The position numbers and the translations under genes were made by a program. A stretch of DNA of 30,094 bases from a bacterium (GTDB lineage: Bacteria > CAIWAD01), in the NCBI GenBank assembly GCA_030685015.1, contig JAUXWS010000090.1, positions 1 to 30,094 on the forward strand, written 5' to 3'. The notes under the pieces were generated by a model that worked only from the letters and a program-made list of their open reading frames with translations, was not told where the DNA came from and searched no databases. How positions within the stretch are numbered: the first letter of the stretch is position 1; every line of letters begins with the position of its first letter. This document shows positions 9,004 through 30,094 of the stretch, piece by piece.

Positions 9004-10071
9004 ATGAAACAACTGATTCTTCTTGCCGGCGCCAGCCTGTTGCTGGCCCTCCAGGCTGCCCGGGCCGGCCAGCCCAGCGTCACCAACGTGACGGCGCAGC
9101 AACTGCCCAACAGCGAAATCATCCAGATCAGCTACGACCTGGCCGAGGACGAGGGCTTGGCCTGCTGGGTGAGCGTGCAGGTGGACCGCGACAACCTGGG
9201 TTCCTGGGCCGTGCCCGTGCACGCCCTGACGGGTGACGTGGGCCCCAATGTCCAGCCCGGCGGCGGCAAGACCATCCAGTGGAACGCCGCCCTGGACTAC
9301 GACCACAACGTGGCCAACGCCCAGGTGCGCGTCACGGCCCACAGCCTGGTGGACGGCGCGCCCCAGGACATGGTGCTGGTGCCGGCCGGCGAGTTCGTGA
9401 TGGGATCCAGCGCCGTGGGCGGCGACGCCGTGCCCGAGCACACCGTCTACCTGGACGCCTACTGGATCGACATCTACGAGGTGACCAACCGCGAATACAA
9501 GCTCTTCTGCGACGCCACCAGCCGCGCCTATCCGCCCGATCCCGGCTTCTCCGGCATGAGCGGCTACTTCCTCAACTACCCGCAGTATCCGGTGGTCAAC
9601 GTCTACTGGGCGGATGCCATGGCCTATGCAACTTGGGCGGGCAAGCGTCTGCCCACGGAGGCCGAGTGGGAGCGGGCGGCCAAAGGCAACACAGACAACC
9701 GCTTGTGGCCGTGGGGCAACGTCTTCAATGCCAACATCGGTGGGACCATCCACCACGCCAACACAAGTGTAACGGGCGATGGCTTCACTTACACTGCGCC
9801 AGATGGTAACTACCCGACAGGAACGAGCCCCGTGGGCTGCATGGATATGGCAGGCAACGTTTGGGAATGGTGCAGTGACTGGTATTCCAGCAGTTATTAC
9901 AGCAGTTCTCCCTATTTGAATCCTCAGGGTTCTGTATCCGGCACCTACCGGGTGCGCCGTGGCGGCTACTGGTCCAGCTACAGTTCGTACGCCCGTTGTG
10001 CCTACCGGAGCAGCGACACACCCACGAATCGCACCTACAACATCGGCTTCCGCTGTGCCAGGACTCTGTAG
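9004..10071 (+). CDS. Secreted SUMF1/C-type-lectin-fold protein with DGR-like variable C-terminus (copy 1)
   Basis: 355-residue secreted protein. The ATG at 9004 has GAGG 8 nt upstream and starts a signal peptide (MKQLILLAGASLLLALQAARA). Residues about 22-115 form an Ig-like beta domain common in front of SUMF1 domains in FCB and related bacteria. The formylglycine-generating-enzyme-like domain follows (VLVPAGEFVMGSS, EHTVYLDAYWIDIYEVTN, KRLPTEAEWERAAKG, WPWGN, DMAGNVWEWCSDWY, GFRCARTL). The two catalytic cysteines of true FGE are not found in the GGYW...RCAYR segment, so sulfatase activation is unlikely; the fold is probably used for ligand binding. Codons 320-354 are the putative variable region (separate entry). 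From about 9760 onward the DNA is visibly richer in A/T than the 5' part. Confidence 0.88.
   Translation: MKQLILLAGASLLLALQAARAGQPSVTNVTAQQLPNSEIIQISYDLAEDEGLACWVSVQVDRDNLGSWAVPVHALTGDVGPNVQPGGGKTIQWNAALDYDHNVANAQVRVTAHSLVDGAPQDMVLVPAGEFVMGSSAVGGDAVPEHTVYLDAYWIDIYEVTNREYKLFCDATSRAYPPDPGFSGMSGYFLNYPQYPVVNVYWADAMAYATWAGKRLPTEAEWERAAKGNTDNRLWPWGNVFNANIGGTIHHANTSVTGDGFTYTAPDGNYPTGTSPVGCMDMAGNVWEWCSDWYSSSYYSSSPYLNPQGSVSGTYRVRRGGYWSSYSSYARCAYRSSDTPTNRTYNIGFRCARTL
9961..10065 (+). other. Putative DGR variable region VR1
   Basis: Aligned codon by codon with 29712-29816 over 35 codons without gaps, it differs at 15 bases. Fourteen of these are at codon positions 1 or 2 and none is synonymous; 13 of the 15 have A in one copy. 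Many variable codons are NNC (TAC, AGC, GAC, AAC), as expected from AAC-rich templates. Bases 10042-10065 are identical in the two copies and sit where a homing-initiation (IMH-like) sequence would lie. The template repeat and reverse transcriptase are not in the window. Confidence 0.7.
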
Positions 10072-10155: not shown

Positions 10156-10419
10156 GTGGATCAGGCCCACGATGTTCAATGTGTTGCTGTCATGGGCGCA
10201 ATGCTCTTCCTGACGGTGGACGGCAAATCCTGCGAGATCGACCTCGGGCGGCAGTCCCCGCGACGGACGGCGGCCACCCAGGCACAGCGGGAGCGCTTCG
10301 AAGTCTCGCCCAGCGGGTACTGCATCCATTGGCCGGAGCTGGATGAGGATTTGTCTATCGACGGCCTGATCGGAGTGAAGCGCCCAGCGCCGGCAGTAGA
10401 ACTGAGTGGCAAGGTCTAA
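10156..10419 (+). CDS. DUF2442-family protein, copy A
   Basis: 87-residue small protein with a GTG start (GAGAAGG upstream). The pattern matches DUF2442: a beta-rich N-terminal half (MLFLTVDGKSCEIDL), then FEVSPSGYCIHWPELDEDLSIDGLIG. The tryptophan-x(3-4)-DEDLSIDGLIG segment is the family hallmark. DUF2442 proteins usually sit next to a DUF4160 protein in toxin-antitoxin-like small-gene pairs; their function is not established. Copy A has lost that partner: a DUF4160 gene precedes only copy B (10853). It is about 85% identical at DNA level to copy B in its first 220 bases and almost identical afterwards. Confidence 0.8.
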   Translation: MDQAHDVQCVAVMGAMLFLTVDGKSCEIDLGRQSPRRTAATQAQRERFEVSPSGYCIHWPELDEDLSIDGLIGVKRPAPAVELSGKV

Positions 10420-10436
10420 GCGATGACGGTTACAGC

Positions 10437-10649
10437 GTGAACTGCCTGCATTGCCAGGGTGAGATGATGCGCGGCTCCTCGCCCTTCCACGTCGATCGCA
10501 GCGGCTGCCACGTCCTGCTGGACAGTGTTCCGGCCTGGGTCTGCACCCAGTGTGGCGAGCCCTTGTTCGAGGAGCGCGAGGTGGAGGCCCTCCAGGGCTT
10601 GATCCAAGCCGTGGAGCAGGGCAGCAAGCGAATTGCGGCGGCGAGTTGA
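10437..10649 (+). CDS. YgiT-type (MqsA N-terminal) zinc-finger protein, copy A
   Basis: 70-residue protein with two CxxC pairs: CLHC at residues 3-6 and CTQC around 37-40, the zinc-binding arrangement of YgiT/MqsA antitoxin N-termini. GEPLFEEREVEALQGLIQAVE then forms the usual C-terminal helix. The start is GTG, 17 nt after the DUF2442 stop, without a strong ribosome site. Free-standing zinc-finger proteins of this size are usually antitoxins paired with a DUF4258/RelE-like toxin, but no such toxin gene is adjacent here. This is the intact copy; its duplicate at 11384 has a frameshift. Confidence 0.8.
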   Translation: MNCLHCQGEMMRGSSPFHVDRSGCHVLLDSVPAWVCTQCGEPLFEEREVEALQGLIQAVEQGSKRIAAAS

Positions 10650-10686
10650 TGGAGGTGGAAACTGACTCAGACAGGGTGAGGGCGAC

Positions 10687-10848
10687 ATGAGCGTTCGTAA
10701 GATGATGGCACTTGTTCTGTTGCCTCTGCTGGCCCGGGCTGGTGGCGTGCACAGCGGGGATTCCAGTCCCTTCGCCCTGAACATCGGCGGCTATCCCAAC
10801 GGCGCGCGCTGGGTCAGCGGAACGGCTGCAACTGTCGTGAGCAGGTGA
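10687..10848 (+). pseudogene. Truncated 5' copy of the secreted protein at 11633
   Basis: The first 44 codons (MSVRKMMALVLLPLLARAGG onward to NGARWVS) match the gene at 11633 almost base for base, including the upstream GTGAGGGCGAC. Identity stops abruptly at 10818, after which nine unrelated codons lead to a stop. The junction falls just before the leader of the DUF4160 gene, so it marks the breakpoint of the tandem duplication. Confidence 0.8.
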
Positions 10849-10852
10849 TTCC

Positions 10853-11110
10853 ATGCCTACGGTTCTGATGATGCTGGGTTGGCGCTTCTTCTTCTACGCC
10901 AATGAAGGGGACGAACCCATGCACATCCACTGTCGCAAGGGAGATGCGGAAGCCAAGTACTGGCTGGACGTGGAGGGCTTCCAGGTCGTGGAGTCCCACG
11001 CCTACAACCTTGGCCCGGCGGACAAGCGCACCGTGCGGCGGATCATCATGGAGCACTTTGATTATCTGGTGTCCGAGTGGAACAAGTTCGAGGAGCAGAA
11101 GCGTGGATAA
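10853..11110 (+). CDS. DUF4160-family protein
   Basis: 85-residue protein recognisable as DUF4160 by its pattern: GWRFFFYANEGDEPMHIHC near the N-terminus, then AEAKYWLDVEGFQVVESHAY and a C-terminal helix ending HFDYLVSEWNKFEE. The family is small, widespread and typically paired with DUF2442, as here: the DUF2442 GTG start at 11103 overlaps its last eight bases. The pairing and patchy distribution suggest a toxin-antitoxin-like or other mobile small-gene module; biochemical function is not established. Only one copy exists although the genes downstream are duplicated. Confidence 0.85.
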   Translation: MPTVLMMLGWRFFFYANEGDEPMHIHCRKGDAEAKYWLDVEGFQVVESHAYNLGPADKRTVRRIIMEHFDYLVSEWNKFEEQKRG

Positions 11111-11366
11111 GGCACACGATGTCCAGCGGACCACCGTGGTGGGCGCAGTGCTCTTCCTGACGGTGGACGGCAAATCCTTCGAGATCGACCTCGGGCGGCA
11201 GTCCCCGCGACTGGTGGCGGCCACCCAGGAGCAGCGGGAGAGGTTCGAAGTGTCGCCCTCGGGCTATGGCATCCACTGGTCGGATCTCGATGAGGATTTG
11301 TCCATCGACGGGCTGATCGGAGTGAAGCGCCCAGCGCCGGCAGGAGAACTGAGTGGCAAGGTCTAA
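11103..11366 (+). CDS. DUF2442-family protein, copy B
   Basis: 87-residue paralogue of the protein at 10156, same length, with the hallmark SPSGYGIHWSDLDEDLSIDG. The GTG start overlaps the end of the DUF4160 gene (translational coupling), which supports these two being the original functional pair. The 5' 220 bases differ from copy A at about one base in seven, with many changes non-synonymous, whereas the 3' end and the following zinc-finger gene are nearly identical. The duplicate is therefore a mosaic. Confidence 0.82.
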   Translation: MDKAHDVQRTTVVGAVLFLTVDGKSFEIDLGRQSPRLVAATQEQRERFEVSPSGYGIHWSDLDEDLSIDGLIGVKRPAPAGELSGKV

Positions 11367-11383
11367 GCGATGACGGTCACTGC

Positions 11384-11595
11384 GTGAACTGCCTGCATTG
11401 CCAGGGTGAGATGATGCGCGGCCCTCGCCCTTCCACATCGATCGCAGCGGCTGCCACGTCCTGCTGGACAGTGTTCCGGCCTGGGTGTGCACCCAGTGTG
11501 GCGAGCCCTTGTTCGAGGAGCGCGAAGTGGAGGCTCTCCAGGGCTTGGTCCAGGCCGTGGAGCAGGGCAGCAAGCGCATCGCGGCGGCGAGTTGA
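11384..11595 (+). pseudogene. YgiT-type zinc-finger gene, copy B, frameshifted
   Basis: DNA nearly identical to 10437-10649 but with one base missing near 11424 (GCGCGGCCCTCG against GCGCGGCTCCTCG in copy A). Translation after MNCLHCQGEMMRG therefore leaves the frame and loses the second CxxC pair. In the correct frame the rest of the protein (VPAWVCTQCGEPLFEEREV and so on) is intact to the TGA at 11593-11595. It is either a recent loss of function or a sequencing error; copy A could still supply the product. Confidence 0.8.
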
Positions 11596-11632
11596 TGTAG
11601 GTGGAAAGTGACTCAGACAGGGTGAGGGCGAC

Positions 11633-12334
11633 ATGAGCGTTTGTAAGATGATGGCACTTGTTCTGTTGCCCCTGCTGGCCCGGGCTGGTGGCGTGCACAG
11701 CGGGGATTCCAGTCCCTTCGCCATCAACATTGGTGGCTATCCCAACGGCGCGCGCTGGGTCAGCGCCACGGCCGGCTTCTTCCTGGACACCTGGACACCC
11801 TGCTGCAGCCGCACAGCCAGCGGGGAAAGCAACTCCTTCAGCATCCAAAGGCCGCCCGCCCTACGTTTCCTGGCCGGCGACGTGCTGGACGCGGACAGCG
11901 GCCTGCCGGTGCCGGGCGCGCAATTGTCCTTGGCTCCCGGCAGCGGCGCTGCGGACGGCGGCCCCAACGGCTGGTTCCGTCTCGCGCCCGTGGCGCAAGG
12001 AAACAACTACCAGCTCTCCGCCCAGCATGTGGGCTATTGGCCCGCCATGGTCTCCGGCATTGATGTGGAAGAGCACCGCCCAGCCTTCCAGCGCATCTGG
12101 CTGGAACCCATCCGCCCCAGCGCGGTGACGGGCCTGCAGATCACGGCGGACAGCGTCAACGTCCATTTGAGCTGGAACCCGGTCGGGGGCGCCACGGGCT
12201 ACCGCGTGCGCGCGGCCTGGGATCAGGGTGGTTATTGGAGCCCCCAGGTGACCACCACCCAGACGGACTGGACCACGCCCTTCCTGCAAGGTGTGGAGCA
12301 GGTGCGCTTCTATCGCGTCTCATCCGTGCAGTAA
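11633..12334 (+). CDS. Secreted protein with carboxypeptidase-regulatory-like and FnIII domains
   Basis: 233-residue protein with a short signal peptide (KMMALVLLPLLARAGG). After a region without recognised fold, residues about 85-155 resemble a carboxypeptidase-regulatory/CNA-B-type beta sandwich (GDVLDADSGLPVPGAQLSL, NGWFRLAPVAQGNNYQLSAQHVGY; the segment is split here for length). Residues about 160-233 fit a fibronectin-III module (VNVHLSWNPVGGATGYRV, then RFYRVSSVQ at the end). The start has GTGAGGG upstream. Probably exported or surface-attached. Its 5' end has a truncated duplicate at 10687. How it relates to the small toxin-antitoxin-like genes ahead of it is unknown. Confidence 0.72.
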   Translation: MSVCKMMALVLLPLLARAGGVHSGDSSPFAINIGGYPNGARWVSATAGFFLDTWTPCCSRTASGESNSFSIQRPPALRFLAGDVLDADSGLPVPGAQLSLAPGSGAADGGPNGWFRLAPVAQGNNYQLSAQHVGYWPAMVSGIDVEEHRPAFQRIWLEPIRPSAVTGLQITADSVNVHLSWNPVGGATGYRVRAAWDQGGYWSPQVTTTQTDWTTPFLQGVEQVRFYRVSSVQ

Positions 12335-28748: not shown

Positions 28749-29723
28749 ATGAATCCACGTTGGTCAATGGCTACAGCCCTGCTGGTGGCCCTGTGCGTGT
28801 CGTTTGCTAGTGCTGGCCAGCCCACCGTCTCCAACTTGGTGGCCCAGCAGCAGGCTGGCACGGAGATCGTGCAGATCACCTACAGCTTGGCCGAGAGCGA
28901 GGGTCTGCCTTGCTGGATCTTCGTCCAGGTGGACCGCGACAACTTCGGCACATGGACAGTGCCGGCCCATGCCTTGTCCGGCGACGTGGGGCCGGGCATC
29001 CTGCCCGGCGGCGGCAAGACCATTCTGTGGAACGCCGGCCTGGACTATGATCGCCACTACGTCAACATCACCCAGGTGAAAGTGACGGCCCACAGCCTCA
29101 TCAACGGCGTGCCCGAGGGCATGGTGCTGGTGCCCGCCGGAACCTACACCATGGGCTCCAGCACGGTGGGCGGGAGCGCCATTCCCGAGCACAGCGTCTA
29201 CCTGGACGCCTACTGGATCGACCAGTACGAGGTCACCAACCTGGAGTACAAGCGCTTCTGCGACGCCACGGGGCGCAGCTACCCGCCGGACCCTGGCTTC
29301 ACGGGCATGACCGGCTACTTCCTCAACTACCCGGATTTCCCGGTTGTGATGGTCTACTGGGCGGATGCCGTCGCCTACGCGTCCTGGGCCGACAAGCGCC
29401 TGCCCACGGAGGCGGAATGGGAGCGGGCCGCCAAGGGCGCGGCGGACAACCGGCTGTGGCCCTGGGGCAACATCTTCGACGTCAACATGAACGGCACCAC
29501 CTACCATGCCAACATCAGCGGCACGGCGGATGGCTGGCAGTACACCTCGCCTTGCGGCGTTTATGCCACGGGCGTCAGTCCGGCGGGTTGCTATGACATG
29601 GCGGGCAATGTCTATGAGTGGGTGAACGACTGGTACGATGCATCGTACTATGGTGTATCACCGTTAAACAACCCTCAGGGTCCTGTATCCGGCGCCTACC
29701 GGGTGGTGCGTGGCGGCGGCTGA
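28749..29723 (+). CDS. Secreted SUMF1/C-type-lectin-fold protein with DGR-like variable region, stop within it (copy 2)
   Basis: Paralogue of the protein at 9004 with the same layout: signal peptide (MNPRWSMATALLVALCVSFA), Ig-like domain (about 23-120), then the SUMF1 domain (MVLVPAGTYTMGSS, EHSVYLDAYWIDQYEVTN, KRLPTEAEWERAAKG, DMAGNVYEWVNDWYDASYY). GGAGGAG precedes the ATG at 28749. Translation stops at the TGA 29721-29723, the fourth codon of the putative variable region, leaving 324 residues. The frame otherwise continues cleanly to a TGA at 29820-29822 and would give 357 residues ending GFRCARTP. Without the last 33 residues the fold would lack its core C-terminal strands, so this allele is probably non-functional. 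Upstream of the variable region the two genes differ by many synonymous changes. Confidence 0.82.
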   Translation: MNPRWSMATALLVALCVSFASAGQPTVSNLVAQQQAGTEIVQITYSLAESEGLPCWIFVQVDRDNFGTWTVPAHALSGDVGPGILPGGGKTILWNAGLDYDRHYVNITQVKVTAHSLINGVPEGMVLVPAGTYTMGSSTVGGSAIPEHSVYLDAYWIDQYEVTNLEYKRFCDATGRSYPPDPGFTGMTGYFLNYPDFPVVMVYWADAVAYASWADKRLPTEAEWERAAKGAADNRLWPWGNIFDVNMNGTTYHANISGTADGWQYTSPCGVYATGVSPAGCYDMAGNVYEWVNDWYDASYYGVSPLNNPQGPVSGAYRVVRGGG

Positions 29724-29816
29724 TACAGCTACAGTTCGAGCGCCCGTTGTGCCAACCGGTACAGCTACGCACCCACGACTCGCCACTACTACATCGGCTT
29801 CCGCTGTGCCAGGACT
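29712..29816 (+). other. Putative DGR variable region VR2 with in-frame TGA
   Basis: Gap-free 35-codon counterpart of 9961-10065. Codons at the changed sites are mostly NNC (GGC, TAC, AGC, AAC, CAC), as expected after adenine mutagenesis of AAC codons. The TGA at 29721-29723 stands where VR1 has TGG. The final 24 bases (29793-29816) equal those of VR1. Confidence 0.7.
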
Positions 29817-29820
29817 CCCT

Positions 29821-29990
29821 GAGCCCTTGGGTGCTTGGGCTTTGGCCCTTGGTTTTTGGCAGCGCCAACGGCGCGATTCATATCAGCCTGGGGTGACACC
29901 CCAGGTGGGAGCGACGGCGATGGGAATGCGACCTGGACCGCGCCGTTGGCGCGGGGGGATGTCCCCGATGGGGATCACCGTTTACCGTGG
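29821..29990. repeat. Hairpin-rich intergenic element downstream of SUMF1 copy 2
   Basis: CCCTTGG repeats (29821-29859) are followed by GCGCCAACGGCGC (29862-29874), a near-perfect hairpin CCTGGGGTG-A-CACCCCAGG (29887-29905), and then the inverted copy GCGCCGTTGGCGC (29940-29952). The outer copies form an inverted repeat around about 65 bases. The same GCGCCAACGGCGC core with a following large hairpin occurs at 8734-8789. Confidence 0.7.
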
Positions 29991-30094
29991 GCGATGCCCG
30001 TGACGGAAACGCGAATCACCATGGGCGATGCCCGTGACGGAAACGCGAATCACCATGGGCGATGCCCGAGACGGAAACGCGAATCACCATGGGC
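29991..30094. repeat. 34-bp tandem repeat, three copies and continuing
   Basis: Units 29991-30024, 30025-30058 and 30059-30092 follow without spacers. They are identical except for one base (CCCGTGACGG in the first two, CCCGAGACGG in the third), and a fourth unit begins at 30093. Each unit junction contains the small hairpin GGGC-GAT-GCCC. There is no CRISPR-like spacer structure. Confidence 0.92.

What the first reader, a model, noticed from the sequence alone, without database searches (positions are those of the whole stretch)
9961..10065. Two SUMF1 3' ends differ only in the manner of adenine mutagenesis: a DGR target pair with no reverse transcriptase in the window
Seen directly: over 35 aligned codons (9961-10065 against 29712-29816) there are 15 base differences, 14 at codon positions 1 or 2 and none synonymous; in 13 one copy has A. 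The next 24 bases are identical. Upstream the same two genes differ by many synonymous changes, so the 3' ends have been homogenised by something other than ordinary descent. Known: diversity-generating retroelements copy a template repeat into SUMF1/CLec-fold gene ends with random changes at template adenines, and an unchanged IMH tail follows. Inference: both genes are targets of one DGR located elsewhere. The implied template has A at all variable sites (mainly AAC codons).
Basis: partly seen in the sequence, partly recalled or inferred. Interest (0 to 1): 0.9.

Follow-up and report, generated by a model that had tools for sequence, protein, structure and literature searches.

The report
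Two targets of a diversity-generating retroelement
The ends of two genes in this stretch have been rewritten by a known bacterial mutation machine (a diversity-generating retroelement) whose kind of enzymes lies elsewhere in the same genome, although the exact template for these two genes is missing from the draft assembly.

Summary
The third-position change is TGG to an in-frame TGA in the second copy. The DGR reading is well supported. The genome holds two DGR cassettes (contigs C67 and C86) with RT, Avd, an HRDC protein and A-rich templates, plus three variable regions assignable to those templates, altered mostly at template A. The two window ends belong to a third family of five SUMF1/FGE gene ends, including two genes whose remaining FGE domains are only 46-55% identical in DNA to the others. 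Their variable columns fall at adenines of the independent C86 template (24 of 28; P = 5e-12). The template for this family is absent from the 97%-complete, 105-contig assembly. So these are remote VRs of a DGR whose own template is unassembled or lost. Remote VRs, several templates per genome, and VRs without a template all have precedents (Treponema denticola, Thiohalocapsa PB-PSB1). New member of a known kind, modest interest.

The parts
9004..10071 (+). Target gene 1: 355 aa, putative signal peptide and N-terminal domain, C-terminal FGE-sulfatase (SUMF1, CLec-type) domain ending in the variable region
   Evidence: PF03781 E=3.5e-59; sequence match to Treponema denticola variable protein 2y3c, E=3.4e-15, among formylglycine-generating enzymes
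9940..10067 (+). Variable region VR1, with invariant backbone shared by five gene ends; 5' limit approximate
   Evidence: Column table; BLAST to C28 and C41 loci
10042..10067 (+). Invariant IMH-like 3' tail ATCGGCTTCCGCTGTGCCAGGACT, carrying the CAGGAC form seen in recipients, not the CAGCAC form of the C67 and C86 templates
28749..29822 (+). Target gene 2: paralogue of gene 1, interrupted by in-frame TGA at 29721-29723
29691..29818 (+). Variable region VR2; 5' limit approximate
29721..29723 (+). Premature stop TGA (TGG in the other four copies and in the C86 template)

Best explanation
9940-10067 and 29691-29818 are variable regions of a diversity-generating retroelement. A template-repeat RNA with AAC-rich codons is copied by an error-prone RT/Avd complex that misincorporates opposite A. 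The cDNA replaces the 3' end of SUMF1/FGE-fold genes, upstream of an invariant IMH-like tail. At least five genes in this genome are recipients of that one template. The cassette that carries it is not in the assembly (most likely a gap, possibly a loss), so the two window genes are remote (trans) targets. Shown: backbone sharing, A-site specificity, presence of two other DGR cassettes. Inferred: the third template, its location, which RT acts, and that diversification is current.
For: Two cassettes: RVT_1 on C86 and C67; closest solved structure 8ub7, a reverse transcriptase (from my own knowledge of the BPP-1 DGR RT-Avd series), E=1.8e-43; Avd NF033474 DivGenRetAVD over cut-off and PF22296 bAvd; HRDC PF00570; templates overlapping the RT 3' ends, with VR differences mostly at template A. 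Window family: five members at C90 x2, C28 x2, C41. FGE-domain DNA upstream 46-55% identical between non-paralogous members, yet 79-86% in the 35-codon segment among V1-V4, with 1-2 third-position changes per pair. 24 of 28 variable columns are A in the independent C86 template, P=5e-12; 27 of 28 contain A. Recipient-type GGAC tail in all five copies.
Against: No matching template and no third DGR-like RT or Avd in the assembly. No read-level or strain-level data, so activity today is untested. VR2 carries a stop that mutagenesis of AAC codons cannot make, and the C41 copy has non-A changes, so some copies may be decaying.
Confidence: 0.95

Rival explanations
1. The third cassette was lost; the five ends are fossils of a past DGR, no longer diversified (a sub-case of the DGR explanation).
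For: No template in a 97%-complete assembly; nonsense TGA in VR2 and non-A changes in the C41 copy; T. denticola isolates keep VR genes without RT or TR (PMC4891356).
Against: Four of five copies match one backbone at every non-A site except one or two positions, so little decay since homing; 105 contigs leave many gaps.
Confidence: 0.3
2. Ordinary gene conversion among SUMF1 paralogues combined with diversifying selection on surface residues.
For: Conversion would also homogenise 3' ends; all differences change the amino acid.
Against: Does not predict that variable sites coincide with adenines of an independent DGR template (P=5e-12), nor near-invariant third positions inside NNC codons, nor the recipient-type tail; two DGR machineries are present.
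Confidence: 0.03
3. The C86 or C67 template itself, rather than a third one, is the donor.
For: The C86 template aligns without gaps over 35 codons and is 73% identical to the implied template.
Against: Many non-A mismatches to the C86 and C67 templates across the invariant bases, whereas VRs clearly assigned to them (C88, C52, C67) match at most non-A sites.
Confidence: 0.02

Closest known systems
Treponema denticola DGR (TvpA; core template with several remote targets)
   Same: FGE/CLec-type target, remote VRs, VR genes that persist where the matching template is absent (PMC4891356; 2y3c match)
   Different: Here two other cassettes coexist, each with HRDC and Avd genes, and the window family's own template is not found
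Thiohalocapsa PB-PSB1 DGR set (nine loci, trans targets)
   Same: Several DGR classes in one genome, targets with FGE domains, targets matched in trans, and one locus whose VRs match no template elsewhere in the genome (PMC10907252)
   Different: No NACHT/STAND domain was found in the window target; population data not available here
Bordetella phage BPP-1 DGR
   Same: RT and Avd related by sequence, adenine-specific changes, 3' invariant tail (PMC3240598)
   Different: BPP-1 target is adjacent and phage-borne; window targets are remote from any RT; no clear GRNA-loop hairpin was found downstream

Membership tests
Diversity-generating retroelement target (VR) | Variable sites correspond to adenines of a homologous template | tested here: met
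   Against the homologous C86 template 24/28 variable columns are A, P=5e-12. The cognate template itself was not found
Diversity-generating retroelement target (VR) | Cognate template repeat, identical except at A, in the genome | tested here: inconclusive
   None in the assembly with up to 3 mismatches over 39 bases, or by BLAST; the assembly has 105 contigs and is 97% complete, so absence from it is not proof
Diversity-generating retroelement target (VR) | DGR-type RT and accessory Avd/HRDC in the genome | tested here: met
   C67 and C86 cassettes
Diversity-generating retroelement target (VR) | VR at the 3' end of a CLec/FGE-fold gene followed by an IMH-like invariant tail | tested here: met
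   PF03781 to the C-terminus; 26-base invariant tail with GGAC recipient form
Diversity-generating retroelement target (VR) | Hairpin/cruciform with GRNA loop 4-34 bp after VR (phage DGRs) | tested here: inconclusive
   Downstream 80 bases fold, but no shared GRNA-loop stem across copies was seen
Diversity-generating retroelement target (VR) | Ongoing hypervariation in the population | not testable with these tools
   No reads or strains available

The most novel reading that the evidence does not exclude
A single template located apart from any RT (an orphan or mobile template) is served in trans by the C86 or C67 machinery and feeds at least five unlinked genes, so that three template families share two RTs in one genome.
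Probability: 0.15. Interest if true: 0.5.

Novelty: new member of a known kind. Interest (0 to 1): 0.33.

Why it matters
Surveys of metagenome assemblies miss DGR targets that are not next to the RT (stated in PMC8144416). This case shows that such remote targets can be recognised from a VR pair alone, without RT or template, and then confirmed genome-wide. The genome belongs to a poorly sampled lineage (only four relatives up to class level were available) and has at least eight diversified SUMF1 genes in three template families.

Tried and rejected
Scans of viral contigs and genome contigs with the VR pattern and with the C86 RT found nothing. Among 98 genomes searched with the implied template, only two distant genomes match, at 71-75%, both with their own Avd; two same-genus and one same-family genomes have no Avd, and their longer FGE matches are only 35-45% identical, so no orthologue comparison was possible. 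An AlphaFold model of target 1 had mean pLDDT 45 and was not used. The RTs on C82, C31, C25 and C15 lack the DGR context and were set aside. The CCCTTGG-rich sequence after the stop codons was examined for a common hairpin without result.

Full report
OBSERVATION. The two segments (9961-10065 and 29712-29816) were recomputed. All counts hold: 15 differences, 14 at codon positions 1 or 2, none synonymous, 13 with A on one side. The single third-position difference makes TGA out of TGG in the second gene at 29721-29723. The invariant tail lies inside the range, at 10040-10065. Upstream the FGE domains of the same two genes differ at 166 of 612 sites, 87 at third positions, with 50 synonymous codon differences.

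THE MACHINERY. The window is all of contig C90 of a 3.61-Mb, 105-contig, 97%-complete draft genome. RVT_1 finds six RT stretches; two of them, on C86 and C67, are DGR-like. Both have the motif context IGNLTSQFLANVY...YVRYMDD; the C86 RT matches PDB 8ub7 best (E=1.8e-43); an Avd gene (NF033474, over its curated cut-off; PF22296) and an HRDC-domain gene lie next to each. HRDC is a described DGR accessory (PMC3240598; PMC10053308). Each cassette has an A-rich template overlapping the 3' end of the RT open frame. The C67 template has its VR in the adjacent FGE gene (C67:86041-86175); the C86 template has two remote VRs, C88:30580-30704 and C52:3218-3344. Differences between template and VR are mostly at template adenines. 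One further base separates template from VR in the tail of all three pairs: CTGCAG-C-AC in templates, CTGCAG-G-AC in VRs, like IMH*/IMH.

THE WINDOW FAMILY. The window ends belong to a separate family of five: C90:9946, C90:29697, C28:62112, C28:45664, C41:102049. Window gene 1, window gene 2 and the C41 gene are paralogues (73-84% DNA identity upstream). The two C28 genes are different proteins (one with a PEGA domain), 46-55% identical in DNA to the others over the rest of the FGE domain, but 79-86% identical in the 35-codon segment among V1-V4. Inside the segment, third positions are almost fixed. 27 of 28 variable columns contain A, against 153 of 306 upstream (P=4e-7). As an independent test, the adenines of the C86 template predict the variable columns: 24 of 28 (P=5e-12). 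All five copies carry the GGAC recipient-type tail.

THE MISSING TEMPLATE. The implied template was searched by BLAST and by pattern with up to three mismatches; the only substantial hits are the five VRs and the diverged C86 template (73%). No third Avd or third DGR-like RT was found. Same-genus genomes lack Avd. So the cognate cassette or template is either in an assembly gap or lost. My preference is a gap, because four copies still match one backbone at nearly every non-A base; this is inference. Either case has a precedent: T. denticola isolates with VR genes but no RT/TR (PMC4891356), and PB-PSB1 DGR 7 (PMC10907252).

FUNCTION. The targets are FGE-sulfatase-fold proteins (PF03781) related in sequence to the T. 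denticola variable protein (2y3c). The N-terminus looks like a signal peptide (sequence inspection only). The likely role is a secreted or surface binding protein with a diversified ligand site; the ligand is unknown. A structure model was attempted but was not confident enough to use.

VERDICT. The open points are the location of the template, which RT serves it, and whether it is active.

Noticed in passing
window 29721-29723: In-frame TGA in target gene 2 where the other four copies and the C86 template have TGG; AAC-codon mutagenesis cannot create it.
   Followed up: partly
L032 (C88:30580-30704) and L035 (C67:86041-86175): VRs of the other two templates carry a 4-base deletion and a 1-base insertion that shift the reading frame before the GFRLCRT end; with the TGA in the window, three of eight VRs are broken, perhaps because the assembler merged variable reads.
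   Followed up: partly
window 10193-11772: Tandem duplication (93% over 635 bases) carrying DUF2442 genes directly downstream of target gene 1.
   Followed up: partly
window 29984-30094: 34-base tandem repeat with GGGCGATGCCC palindromes at the contig end, about 160 bases after target gene 2.
   Followed up: no
L024 330-1684 and L026 1923-2412: Repeated sequence (78-97%, several copies) shared by contig C86, which carries a DGR, and C28, which carries two VR genes.
   Followed up: no
C41:102038-102189 (L011): Fifth copy has several non-A and synonymous changes relative to the others, so it looks older or diversified from an earlier template.
   Followed up: partly
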